Positions 30,713-55,500 of a DNA stretch of 64,000 bases are shown one piece after another; within the stretch, counting starts at the first letter, position 1; each line of letters opens with the position of its first letter. The DNA is taken from assembly GCF_037975245.1 (NCBI RefSeq), contig NC_092581.1, forward strand, positions 18,653,303 through 18,717,302. Direction: 5' to 3'. A program made the translations under genes and the position numbers. This stretch comes from Apostichopus japonicus. Its lineage: Eukaryota > Echinodermata > Holothuroidea > Aspidochirotida > Stichopodidae. The notes under the pieces were generated by a model. It had not been told where the DNA came from. It was given only the letters and a program-made list of their open reading frames with translations, and made no database searches.

Positions 30713-31321
30713 TTACTCATAATAAATACCGTAAACAGTCACTACAGCAAAAAGTTCTCTATTCTCGTAAAAATACGACGCCGAACTATCAGTCTCCTGG
30801 TTCCAAAGGCCTCGACTGCCTATTTCAATGCCTTGATTCATCTTACTTCCCATGACTGTATGGACCACAATCTTGTACCGTGTAAAACGCATAGATTTCA
30901 CTCGAGTCTTAACGGCTTCGGTTATTCGCTTTGTCATCTTGCTGATTCTTGTGACGTCATACTCCTGTTCCCGTAGTAACGCTTCCAGAATGTCCTGTAT
31001 CGCCTCCGTGACTTGCGATACGTTGAACGGTTTGTAGGGAGCCAATTGATACGTATTCTGATATTGAGGTTTCTCCTGTTGTTCACGGTTTTCCGATCCG
31101 GCAATGGACGTTTTCGATATACCGCGTTTGAGTATCGAACGCATACCTGTATGAGCATTGCAGACACCATGTGCTGGTGTAGTGTTTAATTTCACACGTC
31201 GACGAAGAAGGTCCCACTTGAGTTGAGGGCTGCTCTTCGACATGGACACGGCGTCACCATATGATGGTCGCCTCTGAAGGTTCTTAGATGGGAAATCTTG
31301 TTGATCATTACTCACTTCCAT
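30713..31321 (-). CDS. Tctex1-domain protein (dynein light chain Tctex-type family), intronless
   Basis: A single uninterrupted 202-codon frame. Residues about 93-202 form a Tctex1 domain: YQLAPYKPFNVSQVTEAIQD, then YDVTRISKMTKRITEAVKTR, RYKIVVHTVMGSKMNQGIEI, SRGLWNQETDSSASYFYEN and the end LFAVVTVYGIYYE. This C-terminus and the basic, Ser-rich N-terminal extension of about 90 residues resemble the TCTEX1D/DYNLT5-type branch rather than the short DYNLT1/3 chains. Members bind dynein intermediate chains or ciliary cargo; which applies here cannot be told. The start is the first ATG of the frame and the stop is at 30713. Lack of introns beside multi-exon neighbours is notable and may mean a retrocopy origin. 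Confidence 0.9.
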   Translation of the reverse strand: MEVSNDQQDFPSKNLQRRPSYGDAVSMSKSSPQLKWDLLRRRVKLNTTPAHGVCNAHTGMRSILKRGISKTSIAGSENREQQEKPQYQNTYQLAPYKPFNVSQVTEAIQDILEALLREQEYDVTRISKMTKRITEAVKTRVKSMRFTRYKIVVHTVMGSKMNQGIEIGSRGLWNQETDSSASYFYENRELFAVVTVYGIYYE

Positions 31322-32827
31322 GTTTGAAATAATGCGTTATCTTGGCTCCTCTTTGATTGCAATAACATTAAGTTGTTAAACAGACTTGTTTTCCTTCTTG
31401 AAAGTTGTCCGGATATGAAAAAGGGTTTAATTTATATGGTTTTTGTATATATTTTTTTCACTGAATGCTACATCTGAGAACTTCCTCTGTATATAAGTTA
31501 ATTCAAGAATTCACACAGCCTGGACTTAACGAACTCCAATTCAAGGTATGACATAGGGTGACATATACACGGGCTATCTACAGTAGTCTGTCTTCTATTG
31601 TTAGATGAAGTTTCTGGCAAGAGTTTCCATCGAAAAGTTCAAACTAACATGAAGAATATAGACTCTGCTGTCCGAACGAATGTCTTTCAGTAAAACTATA
31701 CACCAACAATGTTCTGATTGGAAGTTAGACAGTGATGTCACATGACACTTCAAAGCGATACGTTGAACCAAATCTTTGTGCAACAAAACACGGCTGAACA
31801 AACAATAATCAATAGATCTATTATACAAATCCAAGTTTTAAATTTCTCAGTTTGCAAGAAGAAACGTTGAACTGTGACGATCGGACGACACATGAACTTC
31901 TATAGTTTCCCGCCAATGATGTTAACAATGAGACATCATGAACGTCCCGACTCTTAGTCTATATGTTAGTGTTAGGGAAGGTGCTGACGAGACCTGTAAA
32001 AGAACGCACACAAAGCGTCCGATTGTTACCATGGTATCAGGACTTTGTTGGACCCTCAAGGGCTCGTAGAAGACCGGTGGGCAAAGTACACATTTATTTG
32101 GATTTGATATACTTCAAACTTGGAACACGAATAACTTTATTTGTTAAAGACAAACACACTGTAATATATCTATATACATTAGTTTGAAGAGGCCCCGAGT
32201 TGTTATTACAGTGAAATGACAAATTGAACAGTTGCGAACAGGTTGTATAAGGCATTACTACGTAAAGTAACACCATCTAAGAAACAAAATGGCAGCATGA
32301 ATCTAATCGGGTTATGGTATATTAAAACCACCCGGGAGACGAAGGGAAGGTATGGAAAGGGGGAGGGGGGGGGGGTGCGGCCTGTTATAGAAGTTATGTC
32401 AGTCCTTACTTCGCAGTTATCCCTAACCCAATATATGGTTGATTGCATGGACCCTATTTTGGCTGGCTAAATCCTCGATTCTTCCATGCAATGGATCATA
32501 GTAACTGCAAATGTTCTTCAAAGGCTTTGCTTCTCTATTTTGTTGATTTATCCTTAAAACCTGATACATTTAGCATGTCTTCATAGCTGTCAAGGATCTC
32601 TGTATTAAGTTATTCATCAAAATGTAATTTTTTGTTGTTGTAGAAATTTAATTTAATTTTGCCAGGTAAGTGAATTATTATAAAGAGATGACATTATTCA
32701 TTCATTCATTCTGTTGCCAGATGCCTTAAAGGCAACCATAGGGACTGCACTGTTTGCTAATGTTAAAAAATACATTCAATTGATAGAATAAAATTATGAT
32801 AGGAACATTAACATTGTAATTGGCACT
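31322..32827. other. Upstream region of the Tctex1 gene, no other gene seen
   Basis: Presumed promoter side of the Tctex1 gene. It contains a G-rich run near 32359. ORFs here are short and without domain signatures. Confidence 0.5.
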
Positions 32828-33193
32828 TTAAACAGTATTGAAGACCCGCCCCAAACCGCGTGCCGCGCTCTGAAAAAGTTAACTTTCTGTTGCTTGCAAA
32901 TGAAGTTTTCTTCTTGTCGCTACAAAATGCAGACAGTAATGAAACGTGATACCTTGTTATCTTTTATGTGGATCTGAGATGTCCATCGCTACTACGTACA
33001 CTGTGTTGTGGGTATTGACCGCAGCTGTATGCACAGACTGTACACTATTGTCTAATTACTGACGGTAGCAAGCTGTGTGTGTATTTTCTGGGATCGATGG
33101 TGGTGTCTAACACTTCTGTTACACCTCACTGGAAACTAGGTCAGATTACCAGCATGAGACGTTTCTTTGTGCACGAGTCTTCACACCCTTTAA
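32828..33193. mobile_element. TTAA-flanked MITE, copy 2 (inverted relative to copy 1)
   Basis: Bounded by TTAA at both ends. The left end ACAGTATTGAAGACCCGCCCC corresponds to the right end of the 3487-3813 copy read on the other strand, and the right end GAGTCTTCACACCCTTTAA to its left end. Internal blocks match, such as GGTAGCAAGCTGTGTGTG and GGGATCGATGGTGGTGTCT against the complement of copy 1. No ORF. Confidence 0.75.
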
Positions 33194-35593
33194 CAAAACA
33201 TCTTTGCCATAGGAAGGTATTATCCCTTTAAACCATTTGCACCTATTCCTTTTATCCACTTATCCTCTGGTGTATTGGATGTAGATGGAATGTATCATAT
33301 TTTCAATTCCTCCATTAATAAGACTGAACAGATTGTTTGGGTAACTGTCCTTGCAAACGCTACAAAGATGTTAATTTTGATAGAGCAGGCAAGCAGAAAA
33401 AGTCACAACAAATTGCTATAATTTATATCTATATATTCTTTTCATTTATTTACTGGATAAGCATTGCACATACATTACATTGCACACTGAAAATGTTAAG
33501 ATTCTTTGAAAAATAACTGAAATCACAAACCTTTCACATAGCGAGTTTGCTTTTAGTTGTTGAAGACATGTATGAAACCAAATTTGACTCCCTAAATTTT
33601 TCTCATTTATTATATGCAAACTTTCAAACTGGTACACTACATAACTCGACCACTCTCCCCCCCCCCACCCCCCTACTGCACAAGTTTTTTATTCTGTCTT
33701 CAAACTTATATTTGGGGACCCTTCTACATTTGACACGATCACACATTTTTAAGGTCATCAGTTTTGCCGCATAATATACTATCAACAAAGACAAATGGTC
33801 TTCCATGCTCAAATTTCAACAAACATTCATTACAACCATCAGAGCCATTTCTGCAGAGAGACTTTATAGTCTACCTGCCTAGTACCTACAACACTACCAC
33901 GATGTTTTGGAAATTGGAATAATTTGGAGACACAACTTCTAGGAAAGTATGTTTGAAATATCTAAAATTTGATCAACATGCTGATTGTGTATGAATACTT
34001 TTACTGTAAGACATTGAACAAAAGAATTTTCCTGAGTTTCATAGTTTACGAAGCTATTAAATATAAATATAATTATATATAGAAAAGGTATTATTGCACA
34101 TACTAAATCTGAATGCGAGAAAGCACCTTAATTTACCCCATGGATGGTAATGTTTTATAATCTTTTGTCAAATAATAGTGAACATTTCTGCACACTAATG
34201 GAATGTCACAATACAAATAGATTTAACTATAGTATGTAAATACAAAATATGAATAGTTGGAAGATTTCATGTTAAAAGTCTAGTAGTGAAAGGTACAGAG
34301 ATTTACCATTCCCTTCACCTCTTGTTACAATACCGAAACTGCAACAGCCAACAGTGATCTTGTGTACAAAGTTATGATAGTAATATAAGTAAATTAACAA
34401 AGGATAGCTGACTGAGAAATAATAAAACTTTGTTCTTCCCCCCAAACATTAAATCAGATATATGTACAAATAGTAAATTACAGTAAAACACTAAAACATT
34501 AAAAAAAAAAGAAGTTATTTTTGATATTTATTCTTTCATTATGATCAAGTTTCCAGCCAAGATAAATTCCTAGATTTCTACTTAACTTAAAGACACAACA
34601 TAAACAGATCTCTACTATACATGAATACAGTGAAATAACTTCCATAGCAACCATTCGGAATTTCCAACAAACTGTAACTTTGTGTGTATTTATATATACA
34701 CACATATTATATATATATATATATATTCATGTCCATTTAGAAGTTAACATTTTGTCTCTTTGTAAAAATCATTTCTGTTTTGTCTAGACTCTGGATGGAT
34801 ATTCATATTACTACTTAATCCTACCTAAAGATACTATGTCATAGCAAAATAAGGTACAACTGGTCGTTATTTTCAGTTAAAAAGTGAAAGTTACATTATG
34901 ACATCTGATAGGAACTCTCATAGGACACAAAATGGATGCATGATGCTCTTATGGATAAGTTAAACTAAGTACTCTAAGTTGTACATATGGATGGTAGTTC
35001 AAGCAGCTGCTTCTGTTTGGTCCTTAATTTCAGACAATTTCCACAACCCTACAAAGAAATACTAAAATTAATATTGATAATTGTTAATTAGACACCACTG
35101 CTCGATATATATATATATATATATATTTTTTATCAGATCTTCAGCTTGACTAGTTGTACTAATGGAATGAATACTTATTACATTTTAATGTTGAATAGTA
35201 TCAGACGTTTACCAACATTCAAAAACTGCCTTACAGAACCTCCATTATGTCAAGACCCTATCAGAGATGACCGTGGTTGAACACACTGGGAAATCTATTT
35301 TCTTTCTTAAGCTCAAGAAATTAAGAAAGAAGACTTGAGTATACAAAGGCATATTTCGTGTCAATACCATCACTTGAATTTTGTCTTTCTTCAAATCTGT
35401 TTTTCAACACAGTAAAGTGACCTTTAAGAAAGGCACCATATACAAGAAGTGAGCAGTTAAAGACTTCCCACTCTGGCTTTCAACTACAATTTCTTCCAAC
35501 CATTTACTAATATGTTTGACAGAAGTTTAATGTTTCGATGAGAACGTCAATCCCACTCCTCTTGAAGCACTTTCTCTCCACCTGCAGTATGCT

Positions 35594-36055
35594 CAAATGG
35601 ATATATCCATAGGCTATCCCTGGTAGAGAGGTGTGCTCTGTGTGATCCCTACAGTATGATCCCTAATGTATCCTGATATCACTGGTTTGACCACTACTGT
35701 CAACTCCTGACTCCCTAATGTAGCCTGGAATCACTGGTTTGACCACTACTGTCAACTTCTGACTCCCCAACTGGTTTGACCAGACTCAAATGGATATATC
35801 CATAGCTATCCCTGGTAGAGAGGTGTGCTCAGTATGATCCCTACAGTCAACTCCTGTTCCCTAATGTATACTGATATCACTGGTTTTGACCAGTACTGTC
35901 AACTCCTGACTCCCTATCACTGGTTTGACCAGACTCCAATGGATATATCCATAGCTATCCCTGGTAGAGAGGTGTGCTCTGTGCTCCCTACAGTCAAGTC
36001 CTGTTCCCTTAAAATATCCTGATAACACTGGGTTTGACCAGTACTGTCAACTCCA
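35594..36055. repeat. Complex tandem repeat, three copies of about 150-190 bp
   Basis: AAATGGATATATCCATA, CTATCCCTGGTAGAGAGG and TGTGCTC recur at about 35594, 35786 and 35936. Between them CACTGGTTTGACCA and TACTGTCAACTCCTGAC recur one or more times, so there is a repeat within a repeat. Confidence 0.85.
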
Positions 36056-36542
36056 TATCACTGACGACTTGCCATCACGGTCCCCTGCTGAACAAAAGAA
36101 AGAATACCACACGATGGTTTTATGTCAAAGAATCAAATTTGTCATTTAGAATATTTACAACTCAATGGATTGGAATATCCACAAGTTGATGTACTTTTGC
36201 AGAAATAAACAATAAAATCAGTGACAACAGGGCGACCAACACACATTTTCAACTTGATTTATAGCTGATAGTCTATTACATGCAACCCTCCATATGTACA
36301 AGATGGTAAGAAATAATCGCTGAGGTAACACACAAACTTGACAAAATACCAGCATGCTCAGTCATATATTATCATAATCTGTCTGGCAAAAATGGAGCAT
36401 ATGTCAATACACTGGTAAGATACACTCTATGTCACTAGGAATGTTCCAGTAATGTTAGATTGCTTACAAAGTCATTTCATTCCCCCAACCATTTGATCTA
36501 AACCATTTAGTCAATTATGGACTAACCTAAGCAAGGAGTGTA

Positions 36543-36603
36543 CCCAACAGGATCACCCCTACACCAACAGGATCACCTCTACACCAACAGGATCACCCGT
36601 ACA
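36543..36603. repeat. 20-bp tandem repeat, three copies
   Basis: The unit CCAACAGGATCACCCCTACA is repeated three times with single-base changes. Confidence 0.9.
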
Positions 36604-36790
36604 CAGATTAGTTTCTACATACTGTAGCATCTGATATGTTCACGACACAAGCAACCTGCCTCCCCCACCCCTACTCCCCCCATCCTCAAACTCATCTAAA
36701 GCAACCATTTTCAGGGCTGAACCAACTCTTAATGGCATTTATTGTTGAATCATCCATTTCATAGCCACACAACAAAACAGGAATACTTAC

Positions 36791-36905
36791 TTCCAGACAC
36801 AGACCATAATTTCCATTTCTTTACAAAGACACCACCTGTAAGGCCGTTTAGAATTCTTCAAATATCTACGTCAATGCAGTATCTCACAGTAATGGCCAAG
36901 GCTAC
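36791..36905 (-). ncRNA. Putative noncoding or 3' UTR exon
   Basis: On the minus strand a strong acceptor (cttttattctttttgcag) precedes this 115-nt segment and a strong donor (gtaagtattcc) follows it. All three frames contain stops, so it is not an internal coding exon. The next good acceptor downstream on the same strand is at 36087/36088 (ttctttcttttgttcag). It could be an exon of a long DBHS 3' UTR or of a separate noncoding RNA. Confidence 0.35.
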
Positions 36906-38047
36906 CTGCAAAAAGAATAAAAGTCATGTTAAAGCAGTATATTGCATTCATATATAGCTCAGATTATATCACTAATACAGTTCATTTATAGCCTAGAAAA
37001 ATCAATTTTTCCATTTCCAAATAAAAAATTTGAAATGTTGCTGATTCATTTTCACATGTGATTAATACCTATATGACCTCCGAGCAAAAGAATTTCTACA
37101 TTCGCACATAGAGCCCTTTAATTTGCCTGCTAATCGAATATCATTCTGTGCGAAATACAGCTGCAATCTGACTCCTGCGTAGTGAACTCGGTGGATATGG
37201 TTACATTGCTCGGACTGGTTTTTGTGCCCAAATACTAACAGCAGCTTAAAATACCAGCAAAATGCCACGTTCTCACTAAGTATTCATAACCATCATTGTA
37301 AAATAAAACCACGAAAAGAAGCACTTCAATAATTTTAAGACTTGTTCTATTGGAACAGATATAGGTTTTCCTATATTAGGATGGTTCCCATGTTATCAAA
37401 TAAAGATTTGTAACTGTCATGTTAAAGTGGAGGTCTCAATTAAGAGAGAAAGTGAGGAAACAGTTTCCTTTTGTCACATTCCTACGAATCGGAATATGCG
37501 AGGTACTGTTCACAAGCACTGTTTCAAACCACCAAACCATCTAATATACCTCATTATCAACATTCATCATTTACAACGAGGCAAGTCATTAAGGATTTTT
37601 TTCCCCATCTGTCTCTCAGAGAACCAGGTTTCACTTTTCAGTTGGCCAGACGAAAAATTTGGGTTGTCTGAAAAAAATGTAGCAAACTAACAAAGAATGA
37701 CTACACTATATACACTGTAGGAGAAATGTGTAGGCTAGGTGAATAGAGCACCAATTTTAAGCAGGTCAAACTCTCCTTTGGGTAGATTCATAGGCCTACC
37801 ACTATTTTTGCTTTCCTCCAATGTCTGCAAAGTGATGAAGAGTCATACTAATTTATCGTTTTACCTATGTAGGGTAGTTTTAGTTACAATGCAATTTCAA
37901 TGTGATGTAAAGAACTAGCCCTCTGTCAAACAATCTCTAAAACTGATCTGGTTGATGGAACAGAAATTTTGATCTAGGGATGACCAGACTACCACTAAAA
38001 CTTCGCCCTGTACAAGAATATGTTAACAATGAATGAATTAGACTAAC

Positions 38048-38110
38048 CTTTAGATTATATTTCAAAGGCCTTCTTGTCATCTTGCCTTCTTATCATCCTG
38101 CTGATACAAC
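38048..38110 (-). ncRNA. Putative noncoding or 3' UTR exon
   Basis: A 63-nt segment between an acceptor gtttcattctttttcag and a donor gttagtc (AAAG before it) on the minus strand. All three frames have stops. Lies upstream, in the transcript sense, of the putative exon at 36791-36905. Confidence 0.3.
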
Positions 38111-39868
38111 CTGAAAAAGAATGAAACACTTAACATTAATATCACACATTTCAGAAGAAGGACTGAGATAACAATTTATTCCAGTCCATGTTGATACATC
38201 AGTACTCTCAATACAAACACACTGTACACCAAATGTTTAATACTGTCATTCAGTGCCTTGGGTTGGATTCATTCACCTTCTCTAATGCATGTTTTTCTAA
38301 GTAAAAGACATACTAACTGTATGAAATTGCTTCCAGAGCAAACTTCCTTTGATACAGGAAACACTTTCAGCAATTACAAACTGGTTACTGCATCAGTAAC
38401 CGGATTTTACAACATTTGATTGGTATAGAGACAAACTGCTCAAAGAAAAGGAATTGTTCGGGGAGAAAAGAACTTTACAACCTTTAATAGAAGAATAGAG
38501 CAGGTGTAGAATTTTACTGTGTAAGCAGATATCATACAAACACTTTCTCAGCAATGACGAAACCAATCCTCTATTAAACAGAATAACTGTGTACTGCAAC
38601 AACTGTTCCGTTCAAAATTCTTGTTAAAAATTTACAACTTAAAAAGAATGTGTATCGACTGTAGTTAATCATTTTTAACATTTTATGTTAGTGTAGAGGC
38701 TATTAAGGTAAATCTACTTGAGATGGGTAGGTGTACCCATGGGTAGGTGATGGGTAGGTGTACTCCTGAACACACTCAGGAATATGACTTCCCAATTCGC
38801 AATTGTACAGTCACAACAAAATTCGTCCATTAAGTAACACTTACAACAACTTCCAGTTGAATCCTTGTTCATCCCCATAGAGTTAATAAATTAAGAAAAT
38901 TCCTCTCGTCAGACAATCCATAGCTCATCCAAATAGATTTATGTTGCTTAACAGTAGCAATATATTTAGATTAGCCTTCCCAATACTTTAATGTACATAC
39001 AAACGTCAAGCGACAATCCATATCTGAGACCCAGCAACGGGTTGAATGGAAAGACAGGAAAATGACTGTAAGATATTTAACTTGAGCTAAAACTGAAGGT
39101 GTACATTCAAATAATGACAACCAATGCTTGTTATTCAGTCTTGCTACATCTTCACACTTCCTGGTTTCTTTATGAGGTGAGAGGTCAATTAACCCTCTTG
39201 TTTGTTGTTGTTGCAATATTTGATGCTAAAATACTGCTAAAGTACAGTTCACTAGCTGTGGTAACAGCAACATTAATGAGTTTAATAATGTTACCTACTA
39301 TTCTTTTACTATCCAAATTGCCAAAATTCAAACTCATCTTATACAGGCGATGTTCCTGACAAAATGAATGGGGCTAAAATGAATCCTACACGTGTAGCAA
39401 AGAGATTACTTGGGCAGATGGGAACCAGTATCTGTTTGCCAATCGTAGGACAATAAGTGTAATGTATCTTTTCCCCTTTTGGGTCCAAAATAATGCACTT
39501 GGAATTCAAGAAATGGTGCTTTACATTTCCCTCGATACTATCAAAGATATTTAGCAATAGTTTAGCCAGATTTTCCCAGTCAGTTTTCTACTGTTCATAT
39601 ATAAAAGTAGAAAAGTTATGACAGATTTCCAGCAGATCACAGAAAGCATCACAATACTGTACATTTGAACAATTTCATCAGAATATTCAAGAAGTGATAA
39701 CCGTAGATTGCACACAGTAGTACTACAAGCAATGAACTCGGTGATAACCAGGTTACTAATGTGGTTATTACAGGAATAATGAGTTCACCATACTGACATA
39801 TTTTAGTTTGATCTTTTAACTATGTGATGTAAATATTAATATCTTCTGTATATCCCTTGACCCCAACC

Positions 39869-40028
39869 AGTGATATCACTAGCCAATCAAGGATGTCACT
39901 AGCCAATCAGTGATATCACTAGCCAATCAAGGATGTCACTAGCCAATCAGTGATATCACTAGCCAATCAAGGATGTCACTAGCCAATCAGTGATATCACT
40001 AGCCAATCAAGGATGTCACTAGCCAATC
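39869..40028. repeat. 40-bp tandem repeat, four exact copies, CCAAT-rich
   Basis: Each 40-bp unit is two related 20-mers, AGTGATATCACTAGCCAATC and AAGGATGTCACTAGCCAATC. Four copies appear identical. The array therefore has eight CCAATC words spaced exactly 20 bp apart and four 12-bp perfect palindromes AGTGATATCACT. Confidence 0.97.
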
Positions 40029-40439
40029 AGTGGCCTTCATCAATAATCCCTAACAACACCTAGATATCCTTATCTCAGAGAACCAGATGAGCTTGTCTTC
40101 ACTAGTGAATACCCTCTAAAGGTCGTATGGTGCTGCCATGAAAATGGTTAAAAGTATTCCACTATTGGGACAGTTGCCATGACTCCCACTAGCCGGTCAT
40201 ACAACATAGACATTCCTTTTCAACTATTTTATTACTATCAAGTGTCTCGGCCATGCTCAATTTGAAATTTTAAGTGAAAATTTAAACCACCCACAGCAAA
40301 TTCCATTTAACTTTTACAGGCTGAGTAACTCTCCTTTTAAACCAATGAAATTTGAGCAGAAATTAAAAATTGAGCAGAGAATATACCACGAGGGATCAAA
40401 ACAGATTGTCTAGAATTATTTAAATTGATCTGGAAGATT

Positions 40440-40891
40440 GTCATTCCAGTGTCACTTATTAACTTGAAATTTCTAATCATGACCTTTGACATCTCTTGAC
40501 CTTTGACATAAATTTGTAATCGCTACCTGAATGTATGAATGGCTTATAAGCTTTGTCATTCCAATGTCAGTTCTAGCTTGAAATTTCTAATCATGACCTT
40601 TGACAAATGTTGACCTTTGACATAACTTTGTAATCACTACCTGAATGTATGAATGGCTTATAAGCTTGTCATTCCAATGTCAGTACTAACTTGAAATTTA
40701 TAATCATGACCCTTGACATCTCTTGACCTTTGATATAACTTTGTAATCACTACCTGAATGTATGAATGGCTTATAAGCTTGTCATTCCAGTGTCAGTAAT
40801 AACTTGAAATTTATAATCATGACCCTTGACATCTCTTGACCTTTGACATAACTTTGTTATCACTACCTGAATGTCCGAACAGCTTATGATG
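40440..40891. repeat. About 113-115-bp tandem repeat, four copies, with DR1-like motifs
   Basis: Units begin with GTCATTCCA at 40440, 40555, 40668 and 40781. Each contains TGAAATTT, ATCATGACC(T/C)TTGAC, TTGACCTTTGACATAA and CTACCTGAATGTATGAATGG. Each unit holds two TGACC-TTGAC direct repeats with a 1-bp spacer, eight in total. Confidence 0.95.
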
Positions 40892-41144
40892 GGATGTTGT
40901 AACCTTCATCTAATTTCTACAAGCATGTGTGTTGCAAATGTACAAGGAGATGACTTGTGAAGCCATGCAAACTTAAACCCATCAGAGGCTGCTAAAGAGG
41001 TTTGTTTAGAAGTCATCACCACGACACTTACACACAAACATCACTTTATTAATAGTGCGTTTGTCAGTGTTCAAACTTATGTTTCCACGATTATAAAAGA
41101 TTCCCACAGTATCGATAACGTAACCATTACAGGTGTGTTTTTGT

Positions 41145-41270
41145 TTTATGCAAAATGACAAGGTTATGTGTAGTAATTCAATCAAGAATCTTGATTATTC
41201 CACCCTTTATGCAAAATGACAAAGGTTATGTTTGTAGTAATTTCAATCAGATTCTTGAATATTCCACACA
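41145..41270. repeat. Two-copy tandem duplication, about 65 bp
   Basis: TTTATGCAAAATGACAAGG, GTAGTAATTCAATCA and TTGATTATTCCAC occur twice with small indels. Confidence 0.85.
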
Positions 41271-44200
41271 GATATATTCCAGAGGGAAAAAAGAAAGAGA
41301 TTGTATCAACTTATAACATGAAATACATCATCAACGAAACAATGGACTGTTGAGAAGTCTTTAATGACACGTCTTACCGTTTATTTTGGAGAGTAAATGT
41401 AACTTGTACAAACCACTTGCGGGGTTGGGATCCATTGTCTTTTCCAGACTTCATCTTGAATGATCCTGCACTATTTTCACACAGGTTATGAAAGCCTACT
41501 GTTCACAGTTTGGGAGAAAAAGAGAGCTAGAACGTGGAGGAGGACAAAAAGATCACAATGTACAAAATACAGTTCTTTTCTTTTCCAAGAGTGAGTGAGC
41601 GAGTGAGTTGAGTAGAAGGTTATGTAGTGGTAGTGGTTGGTAGAGGTATGTTGCATTCGACACCAGTGCTGGTCAAGACTGGACACTGGAACCAGCAGCT
41701 GATGTCTACTGCAGACAACAGGAAGCACCACTTACTGTACACATAAAGAGATCGGTCACAGTACCACAAGTCATACACTTGTTCTTCGAACAACCCTAAC
41801 ACTGTTTGGGTAATGTTCTGGGCTTTAAAAGCTGGTTCTGGTTTGCTTAGAGATATAAAATGTTGTGTATAAGTTCAATCAGGGTAGTCTCAATAAGAAG
41901 TTATCCACAGAAATGCTTAGATCCCGTAGTGATAATATTTTCAAGTCTTGATTCACCTGTAAAAATAAGTTTTTAAGTTGGTATGGTTCACTGCATGCAA
42001 ACAATTTCTAACAAACATATTTTCCAAACTACTACACAACCGTATAGGATTATATCAGTCCAGCTACCAACATTCAAAATGAATGAGTTTATTGAATTTA
42101 CCAGGACTTGGAAAATGTTTTCCAATACAGTAGTACAAGATACCTAAGAGACTAACGAAAGGTCACTTCTAAAAGTCAAGAGTCATCTTCAAGGTAACCT
42201 TTTCAGCTGCATGGTTTATTTTGATCCCCATGTCTGAAATTATTTTGTTACCCAAACACACCCCACATACCATCATGGCTTCATACTATAGCAAAGAATG
42301 CTAAAATTTGACAAGTTTAGCATGCTAAAGTTTGGTCACCAAAAGTTTCACAATAGGTGATGTTTAATGTCCAAAAAAGTTAACACAAACACATACATGT
42401 TAAGAACAGATTGTATTTATTTCTTACACTTGAGTGATAAAAAAAAGTGAAACAATGGTTTATTAATCAAAAGTACAGTATACCATATGAATGTATGAAT
42501 ATTATGATCCAAGACAGCTCATCAAAGATATTACTATGCCTGACCACACTGACCATGCATGGAGGTGTGTGGCCATTGTAAAAGGGGGTGGGGTGTCTGT
42601 TTTATATGAAACACATTCTTACAAGTCATCTGGGACTCTCCAAATTTCATTTGAAGTGATGAGTTTTTTTTTTCATTCTTCCAATTTCTTTGATTTTATT
42701 TTCTCTGAAGGTAATTTGAAAAACAACAGGTCTTAAATTTGGGAGGTGAGGATTGGGAAAGGGGGGGGGGGGGAGAGATAAGGATTTAGGGGAGAGTGGA
42801 AGAGATGCTCAGAATTCCACCCATTCCATCATGACAGGGTGATTTTAAGCCAAACTGAATTAAAAAAGAATGGAGGGAGGCAATGTTATTACTTGAGCAA
42901 TTTAAAACCCTTAACATGCTTAAGTGAAATTGTACTTGAAATAATTGCAAAGTGTGAAAATTGTCCCAGTGTTAGAATATCGGACAATGCGACAGGAAAA
43001 TTAATGAAACACTTTTAAAAAATTTAATTGTCATCTTTAATGAGGGTAGTCCTGCTCAGTGCAGAAGCACTGCTTTCCAGAGGAGCCCTCAACACTAGAT
43101 GCTACCTTATGCATTCTTTTCACTGCATACTGAGATTGCAAATCAGAGGTCACTGAAATCAAGACCAACTAGTCCATTCAAAGATGTATCATCACTCAGT
43201 TCTGTGAAAAACAGACTTTGACTAATTCATAGTTCTTGGAGAGTATGACAAAATAAAGACTTGATGTGCTAAGATACCATCTTATGGCAGTACCAAGAAC
43301 ATTCAGTGGAAAATAATCAAATAACCAAGACTTCCCGAATTGGTTTCTCACACCCGTCTTACATCATCAAGTCTCCATGACGATGGCTATTACACTTGCA
43401 AAGTTATCGGAGCCAACTTTCCTCTTTGTGGTCCATAAGCCAGGCATATCTTGGAGGCCCCAACTGGAGGACTTAGCGAAAAAACTCAGGCATTTGTGTT
43501 TACATTTTTAATGTAACATATTTACTGTGCATACGGGATGTATTTTAACAATCTCGTTTAATATATTTCATTCTTCCCACTGATATATATACTTTACTAT
43601 TTCTTGTAATAACAAAAGCCATATGAAATGGTAATGAAGGATTTTCAGTGAAATATTCTAGTATTTCGCCTTGTTTTTATCCTTTGGCCTATGTTCACTT
43701 TTTCCATTCTAATCTGCCAGCTTTTTTTATTTTGCCTTTCAATTATGGGCCCCAACATCATCAGGGGGCCTAGAGTTTGGGCTCATCTGGCCTATTGGTA
43801 AATCCCACCTGGATAACATACAGTTTAGTAAAGCCTGTGAGAGATGCAGGACAAAAAGAGGCAAACACACAGAACAATTTGAAGCTGATCCGAGCAACAT
43901 AGAGGTATGGCAAGGACTTTCAGACAAAGAATCCTTGAAGAAAAAAATTTTCTCATCACATTTCATTACTTGTCAGAGGTATAAAACCTATCTGTGTCTC
44001 CACCTGTTTCATCAACAGCTTAATGATGAATGCAAGCTTCTTTCCAAGAAACATAAGCTTTGAAAGTCCATTAATGGTACATGGAAAGACATACTGTCAA
44101 TATTAATGAAAGAGTTGGTTTTAATCATTTAAACCATTATGTTAATGTTAAAAATACTTGTTTTGGTTAATGGCCAAATGAAGAGGATCTTGACAAGAGC

Positions 44201-47200
44201 CTATAAACAACTTGTATTAAACCAAACTTTAACCTTTCTCTAAGTAACCCATTCTCCCTATCACAGCTGGTGATTACAGGAAAACCTTACAGAAAGGGAA
44301 TTGCCTTTCAAAATGTGTACACTCCGCTCAAAAAGTGAACACTCGACTCCTAAAATGTTTTCATAACAGTTCTGCAATGATAGCATATAATGCCTGCAAG
44401 TAAACATGTACCTTACTGTCTCCTCTCCCCCCCCCCCCCTGACAGGATGAAACCACTCTGCATATGAAGATCCTTTTAATGATTGAAACATCAGGCCCCA
44501 TAAACGTTAACACACAAACAGGCCTTTTCCAGAAGATAAAACCATGGTTAATTTCTCCCACCCCCTATAGAGGATCAAATCCTACTATGTTACATCTACA
44601 TTGTTACCATGTATATGCAAATCATGTCCAGTAATTACATTCGTGGTATATTCATAGCTTTTTGCATGACATTCCATTACATTTACTGACTACTGGTCAG
44701 ATGGCTACGATCATCAAATGAGAAATGGTCAGCTGGAATGTCTGACATTTTTTAGGGACATACCACAACTGTCAGACCAATGACTATGTCTACTGTATGT
44801 TAGTTGAGTTCTGGAACCGAGGAAAGGTGTTAAGAAGTTTGTACCATCGTATGGTCAGTTGTGGTGAAAGAGTCTGGGGTTGAAAAATGGTGATACCTTT
44901 GAAAAAGTGTTAATAAGTTCATACAATTACAACTGGTGATTGACACAGTTGTGCTGCGAGGTAGTCTGGGGTTGAAAACGGTTGATATCTTTGGTTTTTG
45001 TGAGATTCTCTCACATTGCATCGTGTTAAGAGTTCCCAATAAAACTCATCAAAGTATTTACATAGTTTGCTTTTCTGAAATGATACTTGCAAAAGATTAC
45101 TATGAGAAGCTTGACTTTGACAATTTATCATAACAATAAATGATTATACAGTGACGGCAAACTTCTCCAAGATGTACTATCTTGTCCTCTGTTCAAGAAC
45201 AACATTGTACGTTCACATACATACTGTATCAAGTAAAAAAAAACATGAAGCCATTACAATGGCTTTGTTACTCGCTACTTTCATATATTTACTATTGTAC
45301 AGCAGTTTCTTCACAGAAAATATCAACTTCTGGACGTCAAAAGGAAAGAATACCTGCTAAAGAGAGAAATAAAATGGCATTATCTTCGTTAAACGAGGTG
45401 TAATTTATCAGTACAAGACGACAAAATAACACGGATACTTTATAGGAGGTATACTGTATATATCCATGTACTACAACTGAATACTGTATTAAAAACTATG
45501 CACTGGAATGCAATTTAGGTGACCTCAGCAACAGAGCCTTTTGCTTCAAGATACTGTTGTTGGTCATTCACAGATATATAGATATATATGTAGTATGTAC
45601 TGCAATTTGTGAACCCCAAACACTGCTTGGGTCACATGACCATAGTTAGATAGCTGATGAATACTTAAATCACAGAATGCTACAGTATTGGTCTGCTGAC
45701 AGTGCTAAGCAAAGTACTGTACTAATGCTGTAACCAGGGTCTGCCCCCATCCACCCCCCCCCCCTTGCTTGGTCTAGTGAAAGTAGATAAATGATATACT
45801 GCACATGTAATATTTGTGTGATCAAATAAAACAGTGCCACAGATAAATAATTCTTCTACTGAATAAACTGCATGCTATTGCTGTTAGGTTTAATGCTACA
45901 AAATACAATAAATTCTTTTGAATCTGTGTTGTGGTCTGAAGAAACAGCAAGTTTGATAACTCTGCTGAAAATCATAGGGATTAGGAAATTAATTACAAAA
46001 TAAACAGAAAAAGCAAGGTACCTCTTGTCACTAACTAGTTCAACTTTCCCAAGATACCAATTCCCATGGGAGACATCCCCCCCCCCCCAAACTTCCCTCG
46101 TGAACATTGGCTCAACAGTACTAATGCTTGTTGCAACATGACCAACTCCAGTTAAGCTTCTAAATGTGACAGACTCTTCCAAAGTGGTAAACAAAATAAT
46201 CTGCTCAACAATCGGCAATTCTTAACCTGGACAAATAACCGAATATGGGGTACTCAGAATTATAAATATTGCTTAATATATTGTTGTCTTTTATCACATT
46301 TAGTGTCTGTATTAAAATAATAAGCAAGGATGCTTAAACAATATGAAAACTGGATAAACAACCAGTTATAATTAGTATGTACAAGCAAAAGATATTTGTG
46401 AAAATTACATCAAAGCAGTTCAATAGGGTATAATGATGTAGAGAGTACAGTAGCTATTGAGCAGTGAGGGTGGTCAAAGTGTCTCAAAAACATTAATTTC
46501 ATTCTCATAAACATGAAGAAATCTTTACACAAGCTGCCCAAATGTTACACTGGTTATGCCACATATAGAACATAAGTTCATTAATTCTATTGTTTGTCCA
46601 AAAATACAGCTTTCTTTCTGACTGAGAATTACTTAGCAAGGTCATCAAGCTTTTTTTATTTATATTTTTTAAAACGGTTTCTTAATTTTAAGGCACAACC
46701 TCCGAGTATTAAACTCTCTTTGGTCATTTCAATTTATGACTGTAACATACTGTAGGTTACAATAACCATTAATACTGCAGCTGTATGGTATCAAACGACC
46801 ATTGCAATTTAATTAATGAAATTAATTAGTGAAATGGTTTCACCTTCCATTTTGCACAAATCATAATCATTGTGAACATATTTTCTACAAAGACTTTCCA
46901 GATGAAATTGTCGGTTCATCTCATTCCAGCTTCTAAACTTATAATTTTACCGACCAAGTTATCAAAATATAGGATTATTTGACAAATTTGTGACTGCTTC
47001 ACAGCACTCAGAAGGTATTATCAGACACTTGTATTTTTATGTACTACATGCAGGGGCCACATTTGGAAGTACTAAGTAAGTATACACATTTGAATCTTTT
47101 CTGATGAAATCTTTTGTAGACAAATACATGTGATGATGAGAGCATCATTAAACATACCAGTTACCTGTCAAAGGAGATCCACAGCTCTTAGAGCCTGCTG

Positions 47201-47337
47201 TAGTAAAATCTGGCAGCAGCTAAAACTGATCAACTTGATAAATTCCTTTAAGGATAAAAATGCTGTAAAGAGAAGCTTAAAGTGAAGGTATTCTTCTCCC
47301 AACGAGAGAGATAACTGTAAGGCATCAAAGGTAAGGA

Positions 47338-47450
47338 AGAAGCAATAATATGGGTATGCCTCCACTCACTTCACCCCAACCCCCCTACTCCCCAGAAGCA
47401 ATAATATGGGTATCCCTCCACTAACTTCCACCCCCTCCCAAACTACTCCC
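47338..47450. repeat. Two-copy tandem duplication, about 58 bp
   Basis: AGAAGCAATAATATGGGTAT followed by CCTCCACT and a C-rich tail occurs twice in a row. Confidence 0.85.
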
Positions 47451-48673
47451 CTTCCCATCCAATTTGTCAACTATCATGGGAAGAGCAGATATGGACAGTC
47501 TAAGAGATATTTAGTTCCCATCAACTGAATCTGGCTGCTTATTGGCAGTTATCGTTAGGATGTGAAAACCAACAGGGTAATGTTACTACTGTAGTATTTA
47601 GGCAAATTTGTCAATATTTATTACTTACATTACACAGTAAGTTCCTTCACAAACCCATTTCCCCGGACTCGACGGTTCTTGGACGGTACAGATACAACTA
47701 ACCACTGAAAATGTTCTGTATCCCAACGCAATCAGATTGAAATGTTTAAGTGTGGTGTTCCCTACCTACACGATGGAGATATTACCCGGAAATAAATTCC
47801 ATGCGCCAAGTAAGGGTTAATATTTTGAAGACAAGATATGGGCGAGTTATAGTTAACAAAACAACAAATAGTTGATTATACAGGTAGTTTCTTCAATACT
47901 ATAAATAGGAATTTGTTTTGAAAGAAACAAACAATGTACACTTTCCTTTTTATCTGTTTTTTTTTTTGGTTCTGCCTTCTGGTCTTAGCAGTTGGAAAAA
48001 GAGGGAAAATATGAGGTAAGGGAAAATATGGAGTAGAGAAAATAGGAGTAGGGATGGGTGCAGTAGGGGTAGAGCATATAAGGAAGGTAAGTTCTGTGTG
48101 AAGCATAATATATATGCCTAGTGAAGTAAAAAGGAATAGTTCTCATGCTAGGATTTCCTTGTAAATTAGTGTACATAGCAGATACTTTTGGCTCATGTCA
48201 AATAGAGCACTTTTCTATAAAAAACAAATCGCTCGTAACAGGAGCACAAATAGTTAAATAATTATGTGCATAATCTTAAAAAGCACTTTAGTGTACAATT
48301 TTGTTAACTGTCCCACATGGAACTTAAACTGAAATCACATTGATTAATTAATTAATTAATGAGTTGGAAACGTTCCTCAATGAGGGGGCAATTACGGTAG
48401 CAGGTGCCGTGGATTTCTCTATACTGAATCTCCCTTCATATGTCACTACATTATATTAGACATAGGATTCATCCCATACCATCAGGTTTAAACCAAATGA
48501 GAAATGATTCATGTTTCAGACATTTCTACTAACATAAAAAAAAAACTAAATGACTCTTATACTGCAATATCTTATTTTCATGTGTCATGCAACAACGATC
48601 GAAGTATACACTAATCCACCTTAGTATCTAATTTTTTTTTCTTTCTCCATTGTAAATTCAGGATATACTTACC

Positions 48674-48783
48674 AAGATAACTAGTATACTAGTTACTACA
48701 GGATACTAGTAACTACTAGTATACTACTAGTAGTATACTACTAGTACTAGTATACTAGTAACTACAAGATAACTAGTATACTT
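48674..48783. repeat. Self-complementary ACTAGTATAC repeat tract
   Basis: About 110 bp built almost entirely from ACTAGT, TATAC and AACTAC words, many palindromic, flanked at both sides by GATAACTAGTATACT. The whole tract can fold on itself in several ways. Confidence 0.85.
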
Positions 48784-51700
48784 ACCATTCTTCTCCTTGC
48801 TCAATTGTAAACTGATGTTAATGAGCCCATTGGTATTGTGGTATTGCAAGCTTTCCAGACTAAAATATCCACATCGTCAGGCTATTTAGTATTCATCTGT
48901 GTTTCCTACAGATCACCCCCACATTCCCTCCCTTTTCCTCCATAAACTCCCTACCTCCATAAACCTCCTCCAAAGACTCCATCCCCTCCATAGACTCTCT
49001 CTCCTCCATAAACAATGAACACTATACTCCCTCATGCACCCCTCCATCCTCTTGATGAATACTGAGCAACAAGTACAAATCCTCACAAATGCTTTGTTAT
49101 TTTTGTACATGAAAAACCCCACTGCAATTGATGATCGGCCATTTGGACCCAAATGAAGTTCCTTCCCCCCCCCCCCAACCCTCGATTCCATACCACTCAT
49201 TCACTTATAAGAGGTAACTGGTACAGTAACAGTACATGGTTGTTGCAGGCGACATCATGTGGTATAAGGGTCCTTTTTTTTAAGGTCAAGGTCGTCTCTA
49301 TCAAGAATTTGATAGAATCTTTGAAATCGTTCCATAAGAGAGAAGCCAAAGCTCCAGGCAATCAATAAGATGATACTTCATGGAATATGATAAAATAAAT
49401 GACATCAATTTGCTAAAATGTTTGATCTAAAAGGTCTTATTTTACGGAGAAATTTAGGAGCAGAATAGCCTCTTATTTCTTATTGCTTGCTTGATGATCC
49501 TTGAGTTGAGAGAAAAAAGTAGTGAATCAGTAGGGGTGATTAAACAAACCAACTGGGGGAATTTTACACAAAATGCAGAGCTAAAAATTGCACAGATTGT
49601 TAGAGTTTCTTCTAATTATTTTATAACGGTGAACATAAATACAGGCAAATTTACTTCATGTTTCATTGACAAAAGGATCTCTCCAATGTTTCCAAACACT
49701 TCCGAAAATAAACTTTCTAGATCATAACTGGGAAAAATATTTCTTGGGAAAACAGAATTTCAAAAACAATGGTCAATGTTTTGATTAAAAATTATGACAA
49801 GATGGGACACTGGATGTCTAGATCAGCAAAATGATGTGTATTTTGCCTAAGTTGATAGTCAGGTGAACTTTAACCTGGAAGCAGTACAAATTTGGTTAAT
49901 CTATTTCCAAACAAGACACCTTTGACTATAGAATTTTTTTTTTAAAGTTCAAATTTACTTAATAATAATGAAAGATATTTACTGTGGTCACTAGGTGGGT
50001 AAAAATTGCTACATAACTTTCATGCTGTCATTCAACTGTAGTACAATTTAACTTTTGCATCTCATAAACTACTAGAGCCAGGGAGAGAACTTTGCTTTTC
50101 TCTTTGCAGAGTGGCCATACATCATTTACTAATTTAGAAAGACCATCATTAAGAGAAACGTCTTTGTTGAACTGCTTTATAAGTTTACCTTCCCGATCTC
50201 ATGGATTAGAACAAACCTACACAAGAAGCAGAACAGATTTCTCTGCTCTCCTTCCAACACACCTGAACGTTTCCTATTTTCAGAGTGCAAGACATTGTAT
50301 TAGATTCCCAGACAATAATATGGGTCAAACATCTTACTAGTTACACTAAACCTGTTCTTTTTAATCCATGCAGTGCTTGGACCACAACCAATAAAAGACA
50401 CAAAGTCACAATTTACAATAACTGCAGTGGAAATTACTTGCAGAAAGGAACCAATAATCAGTTCTGGACATTTTGCCGTACATGAATGAATAAACCACAG
50501 GATCAATAACAGCATTCTTGTAATGATTTAAGTTCCTATTGTGCTACAATGGATTAGCCTATGACACAATGAAAGTACTTTGAAATGTTTTCAAGCTACT
50601 TAAAGATACTGGAATAAAATTGTATTTTTTAGGTTGTGAAATTTTTTTTTCTTCAAATGTTGTCTCCTACTTAAATGTTAATAACAAACAATAGGTTGTT
50701 TTTCTACTTGCTTACTAGATACAGACAACACTAATTCATTAACTAATACTATTTACCACCCCAGTGCATTCCCCATTATGGTAAAACTAATAGAGTTGTG
50801 CATGCTACCATGCCAATGTAATTTTCTATGCTCAAAAAGGGTGTAGTCAATACAAGGGGTGTAGTCTATCTCCCAAAAAGTTTCTGGTTCAGAAATTCAC
50901 AAACAAGGATTCTAACCTGTCCATCTCTACATTTGATCTTTCCTGTCTATCTAAACTACACGATTGTAACATTCTAGCACTGTGCCATCTACTTCCCGCT
51001 TACCCATCCTTCTGAATCTATCTAAGAGAAATGTAGATAGGACAATAGAAATGGACACAGGTAAGAGATGAGTGATGTAATTGGCTAAGATTCGCTTGAT
51101 GGGGGGGGGGGGAATTAAATATATAACATAAAATAAAATTAGGTCCAGTGTTTAGGATACTAACACCTGCCAGTTAAGTGTGTTAAAACCTTGGGTAAAG
51201 TGACTTATGTGGTATGCCTTGAAGAGAAACAGCGTACGTATAAAAGATACTGCAGATCGGTTATGAACCTACTTAACTATACATCCACTGCTACAAAAGT
51301 TACTGTGGAATTATTTCACTCAAGGTAATGTTCAAAATTTAAGAATCAGGGTGGGACTTGATTCAAACCAGAGCACGCTTTCGTGCTCTTTTACAAACTA
51401 CTGGCATATCATGAAGAGGAAATAAAGAAAGAAAACAAATAAAGGACTCCTACAGAGAATAGAGAAAACAAACTCAGCATTTGTCATTAATTACACAAAA
51501 CAAACTTTAATTTTACACTATGACTTTTACAACTGAAGGCTAAAAACAAAAGAACTGTGAAAGTTTCCAAAACTGGAGAGGAAGACTCTTCACAAGGTAC
51601 AAGGACACGACATTAGAAATTAAAGATTAAAGTTCGTAACGGAAACATGTTTTTTTTTTGTTACTTCATTCGGTCTACCAATAAAAGCATAAAAAGACAA

Positions 51701-52527
51701 TTTAACACAACCTAATCAATTGAAACATGTATTAAAAAAAACTTATGCATTTATTTTCTTGTTTTGGTTTGTGACAATACCTGTAGTACTATTTACAGTG
51801 GTATTCCATCTCATCCAATTATGGCGGGATTTTTCAGATCACACTTTTTCTTGCCAGTTTCTTTTCACTGGCCACTTTCAATCTTGTATTCTTAAAGGAA
51901 TTTGGGTGCAACATTCCCACAATTTTGACCATAATTTCAGAACAACTTGACAAAAAAAATTTCAATGCATTTATAAAAGGATGAAGTCAGATACAGATTA
52001 TGTACACAAGTCTGACGTTGTAAACTGCTACAGCCAGGCTATGGTAAAAATATCCCAGGTCGGTGATCTAAAGATTTACTGACAGAGTGTATGACGACCT
52101 TCCAAACGATCACATACATTCTAATGAAACACGCTGCTATCACAGAACAGCATATTGTCTGTGCATTTAACTGTGGTTGAAAGGCGAGTTACAATCCTAC
52201 CCTTATTTACAAACAATGTGGTCCCCGGACCCACATGCAGTTGCTCATGGTCTGCAGCAACAAGAAGTGCCAAAAATGAACAAGTATAGAAACAGAGCAA
52301 GATATTGAATAGGTAACTTGCTATTGACCTTAGCTACGATACAAAAAAAAAGGCTTGAACAAGTTCTATTGTTTTGTGTCCTTCCCATAAAAGGAACTGC
52401 TTGCCAGGAAAATAATGTCCACTGGCATTCATCATATCTTTCATTTTTTTTGGATATTTTTGATTACAAATAAAAATCAGGAGATGAATAATGTGTATCA
52501 GATGTCAAAATGCTAGGACTGATCTTT

Positions 52528-55500
52528 TCAGAAACGGCGAGGACGTTTCGGGGCACCTCCTCCGAATTCACCACCGCCGTGCTCATGCAAGTCGTCCATC
52601 AGCGGTCTCGGGTTGCCTCCGCCTCCTCCCATATTTCCTGGTGGCATGTTTGGACCGCCAAAATTACCTCCTATCACACCAACTGGTTGTCCTGGTGCTG
52701 CCCCACTCATACCTCCTCCAGGGGGGAGATTACCTCGGGGATTTCCATTGAAGCCGCCCCCTCCGGATCCAGGGGTGTCAAACCGTGACGGTCGCTGCTG
52801 ATTTATAAGTCGTACAAAAAGTGCCCAAATATCCAAAAGTTTTTTACATCGTTGTAAAGGTTGGCAAAGATTTTACAAGTTTGTTGTGAGATTCCCAATG
52901 TTACAAATATCGCAAATAGTTTACGTTTTGCAATTTGTTTGTTTTTTAAAATTACGGATGGATGTGTCAATAGCATCGACAAGTTACAGTAAGGTAGGAG
53001 AGATCCACAGTCCAGGAAACGATGATTGTTTAGATGCAGGAGGTAGCGAATGCATGGTAGGAAGGAGAGATTGTGTAAAAATAAAGCAATGAAAATATCT
53101 GCAACTCTACAGTACGTACGTATTTCAATTTGGTCAACTCGAGAAAAGAGCTGCTCCTGAAAGGTTTGGAAACAAAATTTTTAGCTGAAAAAGATGATTT
53201 GCATAAAATCTTGACACACGAATGCTTTCATTGTTAACCCACTGCCTGACAGATACATATAGGGAGCCCATAAGGCCATAGTGCAATCTTAATTATAGTA
53301 TAAGTACATGGAGGACTCAATACACCTCTTACAACTGGAATGAAAATCAGAGGATGTTACAGAATAACACAACAATCTCCTCTAGCATATGCCAGACCTC
53401 CTTCAGGGGATCACATCCCCAACAACTGCACAGAAGACACAAGCTCTCCTGCAAAAGGTGCACAAAGGCTTCCATACAAAAACCGGTGTACAGCATCTAC
53501 TACTTAATCACAAATACAGTGGACGAAGGGAAAAAAATTATCAAACCAAAAATAATCGTGACATTCTCAAAGGTCACTTTAGTACAAGGTAACACTATAA
53601 GAACCACAAAGATAATTTTTACGTGTAGAAGTGATGCAGCGGCCTAGCAGGAAATATTTAACCCACAGCATCACAAAATGCGACGCAAAATGGTGAAGTT
53701 GCTGGAAGATACAAAATTCCAGGCCTTCAAAACTGCTACACCAAATCTGAACATTAAATTATTTACTGTGTGACAAAGTCGTTGACTAACTCTGCAAGTG
53801 AAGTGACGGACTGTTTCCCTCGAGGACTATTTTTCAGTCGAAAACTTCATCCTGAATATACTGTATGTGGTTATTAAGTAGTTTTTTTCATATGAATGTG
53901 TCAGTAGCCATACTATCTCAGTTGGACACATACATACAACATACAATAAATGTGGCAGTTGCCATACTGTCTTACATGGACACATACATACAACATTAAA
54001 TCTGTCGGTAAGTCGGTAATTTTTCCAAAACTATACTATACAAATAGTAGCACTCCTTTTAATTCAGATTCCTTCATTTTGCAAACTATTGTGTGCATAT
54101 TTTATTCTGATTATGTTTACAAAAGGTGCGATCCACTGTTACATTATTACCCTTCTTATTTGGAGACCCTTATTATTTGGAGATGTTGCCGAGGTAACTG
54201 ACATTCTGTTACAGGAAAGTATGTATCTAGGCTCAAATGGTGGCAAGCATTAGCAACTTCAGCAAATATAGTTTGACAATATTAGTCATAACTGAAGCTG
54301 CATTGGAGCTGCAACTGTGCATCATTTTGGACAAGCCATATCATATTTGCACATAATTTGTTCTCTATTTATGTATATAACAATACCTACATTGTAACCA
54401 ACATAACCTACATTGTAACCAAGGTTACCTATCAATGTAAGAAAGAGATCTCCATGCGCTCACAGTCGCTGAGTTGCTGCTTTGCTTGGATGCAATACTG
54501 TGTTGCTCAAAGTCAATGCACTATTTTATCACAACTCATAAGAAAAACCTTACTTTATACCCAATTCCTCACGATTTTGGTGGAGTGAAGTAACACAGTT
54601 TGTTTACAAGTAGCCTATCTTTAACGATCAACGATCCTACCACCATCAAGACTGAAACAAATTTATTGAACACATAGTACAGAATTTAAACCCTTGCTGT
54701 AAGAAGCATGTACTCATAGGCAAAGCTGTTATATTGCACAGTACTTGTGCAATCTACAAAATGGAGATTAGACAAGACTGTTGAGAGTCTAAAGGGTTAT
54801 GAACCCTGCAAGTAACATTTACTGTTTACACACATCAAGAATTTGCTTGCATACTAAGAATCACAGGCAAAATGAGATCACAAAATGTCTGCTTTTTGAA
54901 GTTTGGTACAGTAAAGTGTCACAGAAAATACGGCTTACAAATCATCATTTTCAGGATTTTGATTCTGTTTAGAAAAGTTAATGGCGGATGAACATTTCCT
55001 TGTCGCCCATTCCTGCAGGTGGAATAAATCCAGTGGACTGCTAAAATATAAGCTCATGGCTTTGCTAGACTGCATAAAGTTTGACTTCACGCAACAGGCT
55101 GTGGTACTGTTCTGTGGACTAGAATATATTTCTTAACGTGCCCTCAGAGCCACATACTATTTGCATACAGTTGGCGGCTGATATATATAGCTGGACAAAA
55201 GGCCACTCAAAGGAGAAATAAACACTCTCGTAAACAGTGAAATATTCTAATGCATCATGGTCAAAATGTCAGCTTTGGCTCCCGACAAAAAGATTTCCCA
55301 ATTTCATAATTTGCAATGGAATTTGTATTTGTAGATATTTAACTCCCATAGCACTCTGATACTTAATTAAACAAATTGTTCCCTATTCGATCTGGGATTC
55401 AAGTGAATTTCCAAGTATTACCTCCATCCTACATCGCACAAGTGAAAGCTATTGTCATGTGATCTCTGAGTAAGGAAATGGCTCTTTAATTGTTCATAAC

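What the first reader, a model, noticed from the sequence alone, without database searches (positions are those of the whole stretch)
36087..51449. Chain of good minus-strand splice sites in a gene-free 19-kb region
Segments 51004-51449, 45293-45356, 41736-41956, 38048-38110 and 36791-36905 each lie between a pyrimidine-rich acceptor and a GT donor on the minus strand, with a further acceptor at 36087. The two best have stops in all frames. All share the DBHS strand and lie downstream of its stop. They may be exons of a long spliced DBHS 3' UTR, which would make transcripts targets of nonsense-mediated decay, or of an unannotated lncRNA.
Basis: partly seen in the sequence, partly recalled or inferred. 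Interest (0 to 1): 0.6.

Follow-up and report, generated by a model that had tools for sequence, protein, structure and literature searches.

The report
Hidden 18-kb tail of DBHS gene
The 'empty' DNA after a sea-cucumber gene for a DBHS RNA-binding protein carries two independent evolutionary footprints of being transcribed as part of that gene, so the gene probably has a second, far-away end, as human SFPQ does, although the particular exons first proposed cannot be told from chance.

Summary
The exons are not established. Donors are ordinary. Known introns hold similar decoys.

The idea behind the finding nevertheless gains support from tests that ignore splice sites. Minus-strand G+T excess, which marks the sense strand of known introns here, is 0.0545 over 33.35-51.7 kb. 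That equals the DBHS gene body (0.0563), with no break at the DBHS poly(A) site, and it drops to 0 below 33,353. CpG depletion (o/e 0.28; intergenic 0.86) breaks independently at 33,175. The two best poly(A) signals on this strand are at 51,755 (the ordinary DBHS end) and 34,532 (the end of this domain). The last strong acceptor, 36,084/36,087, lies 1.55 kb before the latter.

Best reading: the DBHS transcription unit runs to about 34 kb, with a proximal and a distal 3' end, as in human SFPQ, whose distal isoform is destroyed by NMD. An abutting lncRNA or long read-through is not excluded. Everything is inferred from genome sequence; RNA is needed.

The parts
52528..52797 (-). Canonical last coding exon of DBHS (ends ...APKRPRRF*), with a very weak acceptor (tataaatcag|cag, -3 to -4 bits)
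   Evidence: Frame continues in phase 0 from the exon ending at 58902; acceptor scores
58902..59004 (-). Last recognised DBHS exon before it, donor CAGACT|GTGAGT; phase 0, the natural donor for skipping into a distal exon
51750..51755 (-). Proximal poly(A) signal AATAAA, 773 nt after the DBHS stop codon; GU/U score 26 (control 99th percentile 21.3)
33353..51700 (-). Footprint of a minus-strand germline transcription unit: G+T excess 0.0545, CpG o/e 0.28, continuous with DBHS
34527..34532 (-). Distal poly(A) signal AATAAA, GU/U score 28, the highest in the region and reached by 0.3% of 369 control AATAAA
34515..36084 (-). Proposed distal terminal exon: third-best acceptor (36084, tandem with 36087) to just after the distal poly(A) signal; low-coordinate end approximate
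36791..36905 (-). Candidate internal exon: acceptor 8.06 bits, donor GAA|GTAAGT 3.49 bits, stops in all frames, single-copy; unproven
38048..38110 (-). Candidate internal exon: acceptor 7.05 bits, donor AAG|GTTAGT 3.67 bits, stops in all frames, single-copy; unproven
41736..41956 (-). Weak candidate exon (acceptor 3.62, donor 2.16 bits)
45293..45353 (-).
51004..51449 (-). Candidate first distal exon: acceptor 6.87, donor 4.06 bits, donor inside an old repeat; in phase 0 it would add a 28-aa tail ending CKRARKRALV*

Best explanation
The 18.5 kb after the DBHS 3' end is not intergenic. It is the distal part of a minus-strand transcription unit that continues from the DBHS gene and ends near 34 kb. 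Most likely the gene has two 3' ends: the ordinary one at the poly(A) signal 51,755 and a distal one at 34,532. The distal end is reached when transcription reads past the first site and splicing joins the DBHS exons, past the weak-acceptor normal last exon, to a distal terminal exon starting near 36,084, with or without some of the short candidate exons. Such a transcript would lack the canonical C-terminus, or carry an intron after the stop codon, and would then be expected to be an NMD target through which the protein could limit its own level, as in human SFPQ. Shown here: sequence footprints of transcription, their common end, and the two poly(A) signals. Inferred: continuity with DBHS, the splicing, and the NMD.
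For: (1) Minus-strand G+T excess is 0.0545 over 33,353-51,700 versus 0.0563 over 51,700-64,000; a break at 51,700 gains nothing (LR 0.02) and the best break inside 33,353-64,000 gains only 6.4. The break at 33,353 has LR 54.9, and the best break was not reached in 1,000 block permutations. The excess is 0.0006 over 26,000-33,353. (2) Calibration: all 8 introns of myosin genes of known strand have positive sense-strand G+T excess (mean 0.034); eight 20-kb controls do not exceed 0.024. (3) CpG o/e is 0.28 here, 0.39 in the DBHS body, 0.20-0.63 in known introns and 0.86 in the neighbouring intergenic DNA, with an independent break at 33,175. Methylation lies mainly in gene bodies in a sea star (PMC12550476) and is concentrated in gene regions in A. 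japonicus (PMC8027599). (4) The two strongest AATAAA + GU/U sites of the strand are 34,532 and 51,755. (5) No clearly CpG-rich 500-bp stretch suggests a separate promoter inside. (6) Precedent in the same gene family: PMC6547761 and PMC12372870.
Against: Exon pairs are not above chance. Mutational asymmetry is reported to extend past gene 3' ends in mammals (PMC2927911), so long read-through could leave the footprint without any stable RNA. The boundary abuts a dispersed repeat (32,837-33,193), so its exact place is uncertain. Only eight introns, all from myosin genes, calibrate the skew. No RNA, no related genome and no conservation test was available.
Confidence: 0.5

Rival explanations
1. 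A separate, unannotated minus-strand lncRNA gene starts just downstream of DBHS (about 51 kb) and ends at 34.5 kb, in tandem with it.
For: Same footprints; own strong poly(A) signal at 34,532; no protein domain in any minus frame.
Against: No change of skew at 51.7 kb (LR 0.02) and no clearly CpG-rich stretch between 52.5 and 33.2 kb that would mark an unmethylated promoter.
Confidence: 0.22
2. Unprocessed read-through: polymerase routinely runs far past the DBHS poly(A) site before terminating near 33 kb; mutation and methylation left their mark but no spliced RNA is made.
For: Asymmetry continues downstream of genes in mammals (PMC2927911); exon pairs no better than chance; ordinary donors.
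Against: 18 kb with no decline; the domain ends beside the best poly(A) signal of the region, which pure read-through would not predict; the one plus-strand gene end in the window (PBP-family gene, last frame ends near 23.57 kb) loses its footprint within about 2.5 kb.
Confidence: 0.2
3. The segments are 5' untranslated exons of the Tctex-1-family gene at 30,713-31,336, which lies on the same strand.
For: Same strand and next coding frame downstream.
Against: Footprints stop at 33.2-33.4 kb, before that gene; 26.0-33.35 kb has no skew (0.0006) and CpG o/e 0.86.
Confidence: 0.04
4. Nothing is there: chance splice motifs in ordinary intergenic DNA.
For: Exon-pair statistics and acceptor decoys in known introns.
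Against: The skew and CpG footprints and their shared end.
Confidence: 0.04

Closest known systems
Human SFPQ alternative distal 3' UTR (altSFPQ; exon 9 joined past exon 10)
   Same: Same protein family (DBHS: RRM, NOPS); good acceptors and a distal poly(A) site downstream of the normal last exon, same strand; the first distal exon would end the frame quickly (28 codons here, 7 in altSFPQ).
   Different: Splicing, NMD and self-control are shown in human cells (PMC6547761, PMC12372870) and not shown here; the exons cannot be shown homologous; this genome has one DBHS gene (one NOPS match) where mammals have three.
Chironomus Hrp65 isoforms (DBHS protein)
   Same: A DBHS gene giving isoforms that differ in nuclear import because some lack a nuclear localisation signal (title of a reference cited in PMC12372870).
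   Different: No isoform evidence here; the comparison rests on that title and general knowledge.
Poison-exon / AS-NMD autoregulation of RNA-binding protein genes
   Same: Predicted outcome: an unproductive transcript of an RNA-binding protein gene.
   Different: Here it would act through a distal 3' end, and no junction is known.

Membership tests
SFPQ-type NMD autoregulation by a distal 3' UTR | Host gene encodes a DBHS protein | tested here: met
   RRM_1 and NOPS; best PDB matches NONO, SFPQ, PSPC1
SFPQ-type NMD autoregulation by a distal 3' UTR | Transcription of the host gene continues past the normal poly(A) site | tested here: inconclusive
   Skew and CpG footprints continue without a break to 33.2-33.4 kb; indirect
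SFPQ-type NMD autoregulation by a distal 3' UTR | Distal exons with usable splice sites | tested here: inconclusive
   Strong acceptors; donors and pairs at chance level
SFPQ-type NMD autoregulation by a distal 3' UTR | Distal poly(A) site | tested here: met
   AATAAA 34,532 with GU/U score 28, reached by 0.3% of controls; met as a sequence prediction only
SFPQ-type NMD autoregulation by a distal 3' UTR | Distal isoform is degraded by NMD and promoted by the protein itself | not testable with these tools
   Needs RNA and knock-down
SFPQ-type NMD autoregulation by a distal 3' UTR | First distal exon conserved between species | not testable with these tools
   No related animal genome is held
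Independent lncRNA gene | No coding potential | tested here: met
   No Pfam match in minus frames
Independent lncRNA gene | Own promoter | tested here: inconclusive
   No clearly CpG-rich stretch and no skew break near 51 kb; not every promoter would show these

The most novel reading that the evidence does not exclude
The single echinoderm DBHS gene has an SFPQ-like switch: skipping of its weak-acceptor last exon into distal exons up to 17 kb away gives an unproductive or C-terminally altered isoform (in one version with a new basic tail KRARKR from 51,449) that tunes DBHS levels, so this self-control would predate the vertebrate expansion of DBHS genes.
Probability: 0.22. Interest if true: 0.65.

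Novelty: new member of a known kind. Interest (0 to 1): 0.42.

Why it matters
If true, the end of this gene is misplaced by about 17 kb, and the distal-3'-end self-control of SFPQ, which is disturbed in ALS, would have a counterpart in a distant deuterostome, making its age testable. The method is also useful: in this genome, strand asymmetry plus CpG depletion outlines transcription units from raw sequence where splice-site reading cannot.

Tried and rejected
Splice chain as evidence: rejected on shuffles, the opposite strand and genomic controls. Power is low: real DBHS donors score 1.2-8.3 and acceptors -4 to 7.8 with the same matrices, so failure does not disprove exons. The human-like splice matrices were written from general knowledge, not trained on this species. 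Hidden coding gene: no Pfam match. Hidden structured RNA: only sub-threshold Rfam hits; the hairpin GAGCACGAAAGCGUGCUC near 51,380 sits in a 120-nt stretch that folds no better than shuffles. Processed copies of the supposed transcript elsewhere in the genome: none among the matches. Low skew below 33 kb being due to one large young transposon: no sign of it; the repeat at the boundary is only about 350 bp and matches in held loci are short. Tctex 5' exons: rejected on the footprints. Paralogous DBHS locus for comparison: none. A paper search for A. japonicus long-read transcripts gave nothing usable.

Full report
Setting. The window is G000:C21:18,653,303-18,717,302 of a 671,581,487-base genome in 35 contigs. 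The size and the 23 large contigs fit the sea cucumber Apostichopus japonicus assembly (671.60 Mb, 23 chromosomes, 34 scaffolds; PMC10344927); this is an inference. The minus-strand gene at 52.5-64 kb has an RRM and a NOPS domain and matches NONO, SFPQ and PSPC1 in the PDB, so the DBHS label is right. It is the only NOPS match in the genome. Its C-terminus APKRPRRF* at 52,528 looks like a DBHS end.

The observation. On position-weight matrices the acceptors at 45,353, 36,905, 36,084, 38,110 and 51,449 are the 1st, 2nd, 3rd, 4th and 6th of 1,177 AGs on the minus strand of 33.2-52.5 kb. Donors are not special. The donor at 45,293 is poor (-2.9 bits), and the one at 51,004 lies in an old repeat found at three other places. 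Counting all non-overlapping acceptor-donor pairs of 50-450 nt, the minus strand has 8 at 9 bits or more against 6.0+-1.9 in dinucleotide shuffles, and the plus strand has 10. Random 19.3-kb stretches average 5.2 with wide scatter, 2 of 20 reaching 8, and GTRAG donors follow the best acceptors at about the chance rate. A modest excess of strong acceptors remains (7 at 6.5 bits or more; shuffles 2.2, controls 2.45), but known introns reach 0-9 per 19.3 kb on their sense strand. The test is weak, because some of the genuine DBHS junctions also score poorly.

Footprint 1, strand asymmetry. In introns of myosin genes of known orientation the sense strand is richer in G+T in 8 of 8 cases (mean excess 0.034, tandem repeats masked). 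Over 33,353-51,700 the minus strand has an excess of 0.0545, the same as over the DBHS side (0.0563). A change-point search puts the only break of the right-hand half of the window at 33,353. A break at the DBHS poly(A) site has a likelihood-type gain of 0.02 and the break at 33,353 one of 54.9; none of 1,000 block permutations reached the best break. Below it, 26,000-33,353 has 0.0006. Eight 20-kb controls lie between -0.004 and 0.024. Removing the dispersed repeats changes nothing (0.0552).

Footprint 2, CpG depletion. CpG observed/expected is 0.28 over 33,353-51,700, 0.39 over the DBHS side, 0.20-0.63 in the known introns, and 0.86 over 26,000-33,353. An independent change-point search on CpG gives 33,175, 178 bases from the skew break. 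CpG loss is strand-symmetric, so it is not the same signal counted twice. In a sea star, introns are methylated at 48-50% and intergenic DNA at 11.5-12% (PMC12550476). In A. japonicus methylated CCGG sites are reported to concentrate in gene regions, then introns (PMC8027599). No clearly CpG-rich 500-bp stretch between 52.5 and 33.2 kb suggests a separate promoter; the highest is 0.76 at 37.0-37.5 kb.

Footprint 3, ends. Of the 18 AATAAA signals on the minus strand of this region, two stand out for the GU/U-rich sequence that follows: 34,532 (score 28) and 51,755 (26). Among 369 control signals the median is 11, the 99th percentile 21.3, and 0.3% reach 28. The first lies 1.2 kb inside the end of the skew domain; the second is 773 nt after the DBHS stop codon and is its natural end. 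The last strong acceptor, 36,084 or 36,087, is 1.55 kb before the distal signal, which makes a plausible terminal exon.

Interpretation. The simplest account is one transcription unit that starts with DBHS and ends near 34 kb, with a proximal and a distal poly(A) site. Human SFPQ has this plan: exon 9 is joined either to the normal last exon or to distal exons, the distal form is an NMD target, and the protein promotes it (PMC6547761; PMC12372870). Here the normal last exon has a very weak acceptor (-3 to -4 bits), which would make skipping easy. The last recognised exon before it ends in phase 0 at 58,902. Joined to 51,449 it would add 28 residues ending CKRARKRALV*, a basic tail; this is noted as a curiosity, since it was seen after the fact. 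Whether any of the short segments is an exon is open; I put each at 0.1-0.25, and the terminal exon at 36,084 at about 0.35.

Limits. Everything rests on genome sequence. In mammals asymmetry continues beyond gene ends (PMC2927911), so unprocessed read-through remains possible, although 18 kb without decline, ending at a strong poly(A) signal, is less expected. A separate lncRNA directly downstream of DBHS would look nearly the same. The break position is blurred by a 350-bp repeat at 32,837-33,193. The skew calibration uses one gene family, and the control set is small. Stranded long-read RNA with NMD blocked would decide.

Noticed in passing
window 1-33353: The same two footprints outline other units: minus-strand G+T excess to 13.6 kb (cNMP-binding gene, minus), plus-strand excess about 13.6-26 kb (PBP-family gene, plus), then unskewed DNA with CpG o/e 0.86 to 33.2 kb; CpG break at 25,775.
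   Followed up: partly
window 30713-31336 (-): Intronless 207-aa frame of the Tctex-1 dynein light chain family (PF03645, E 8e-27) lying in CpG-rich, unskewed DNA.
   Followed up: no
window 32837-33193 and 3487-3813: Short dispersed repeat of about 350 bp, with copies 84-95% identical and thousands of candidate places in the genome; one copy abuts the end of the footprint domain.
   Followed up: partly
window 37589-38012: Old dispersed repeat, 70-79% identical to dozens of places, between the two candidate exons at 38.1 and 36.9 kb.
   Followed up: no
window 29240-29313 (+): tRNA-Tyr-like gene with anticodon ATA inside DNA that recurs three times in a control locus (29172-29397), so probably a tRNA-derived repeat and not a working tRNA gene.
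   Followed up: partly
window 28283-28645 (-): Frame with a YADDTAL motif, looks like a decayed reverse transcriptase; no Pfam match at 0.01.
   Followed up: no
window 51371-51388 (-): Perfect short hairpin GAGCACGAAAGCGTGCTC inside the first candidate exon, in the stretch that would encode RARKRAL in phase 0.
   Followed up: partly
window 10876-11735 and 40434-40874: Minisatellites with 84/161-bp and 113-bp units.
   Followed up: no
L017-L018 (G000:C11:6000001-6020000): A control stretch that is almost wholly tandem satellite with CpG o/e 2.4 and almost no splice-like sites; left out of the skew controls.
   Followed up: no
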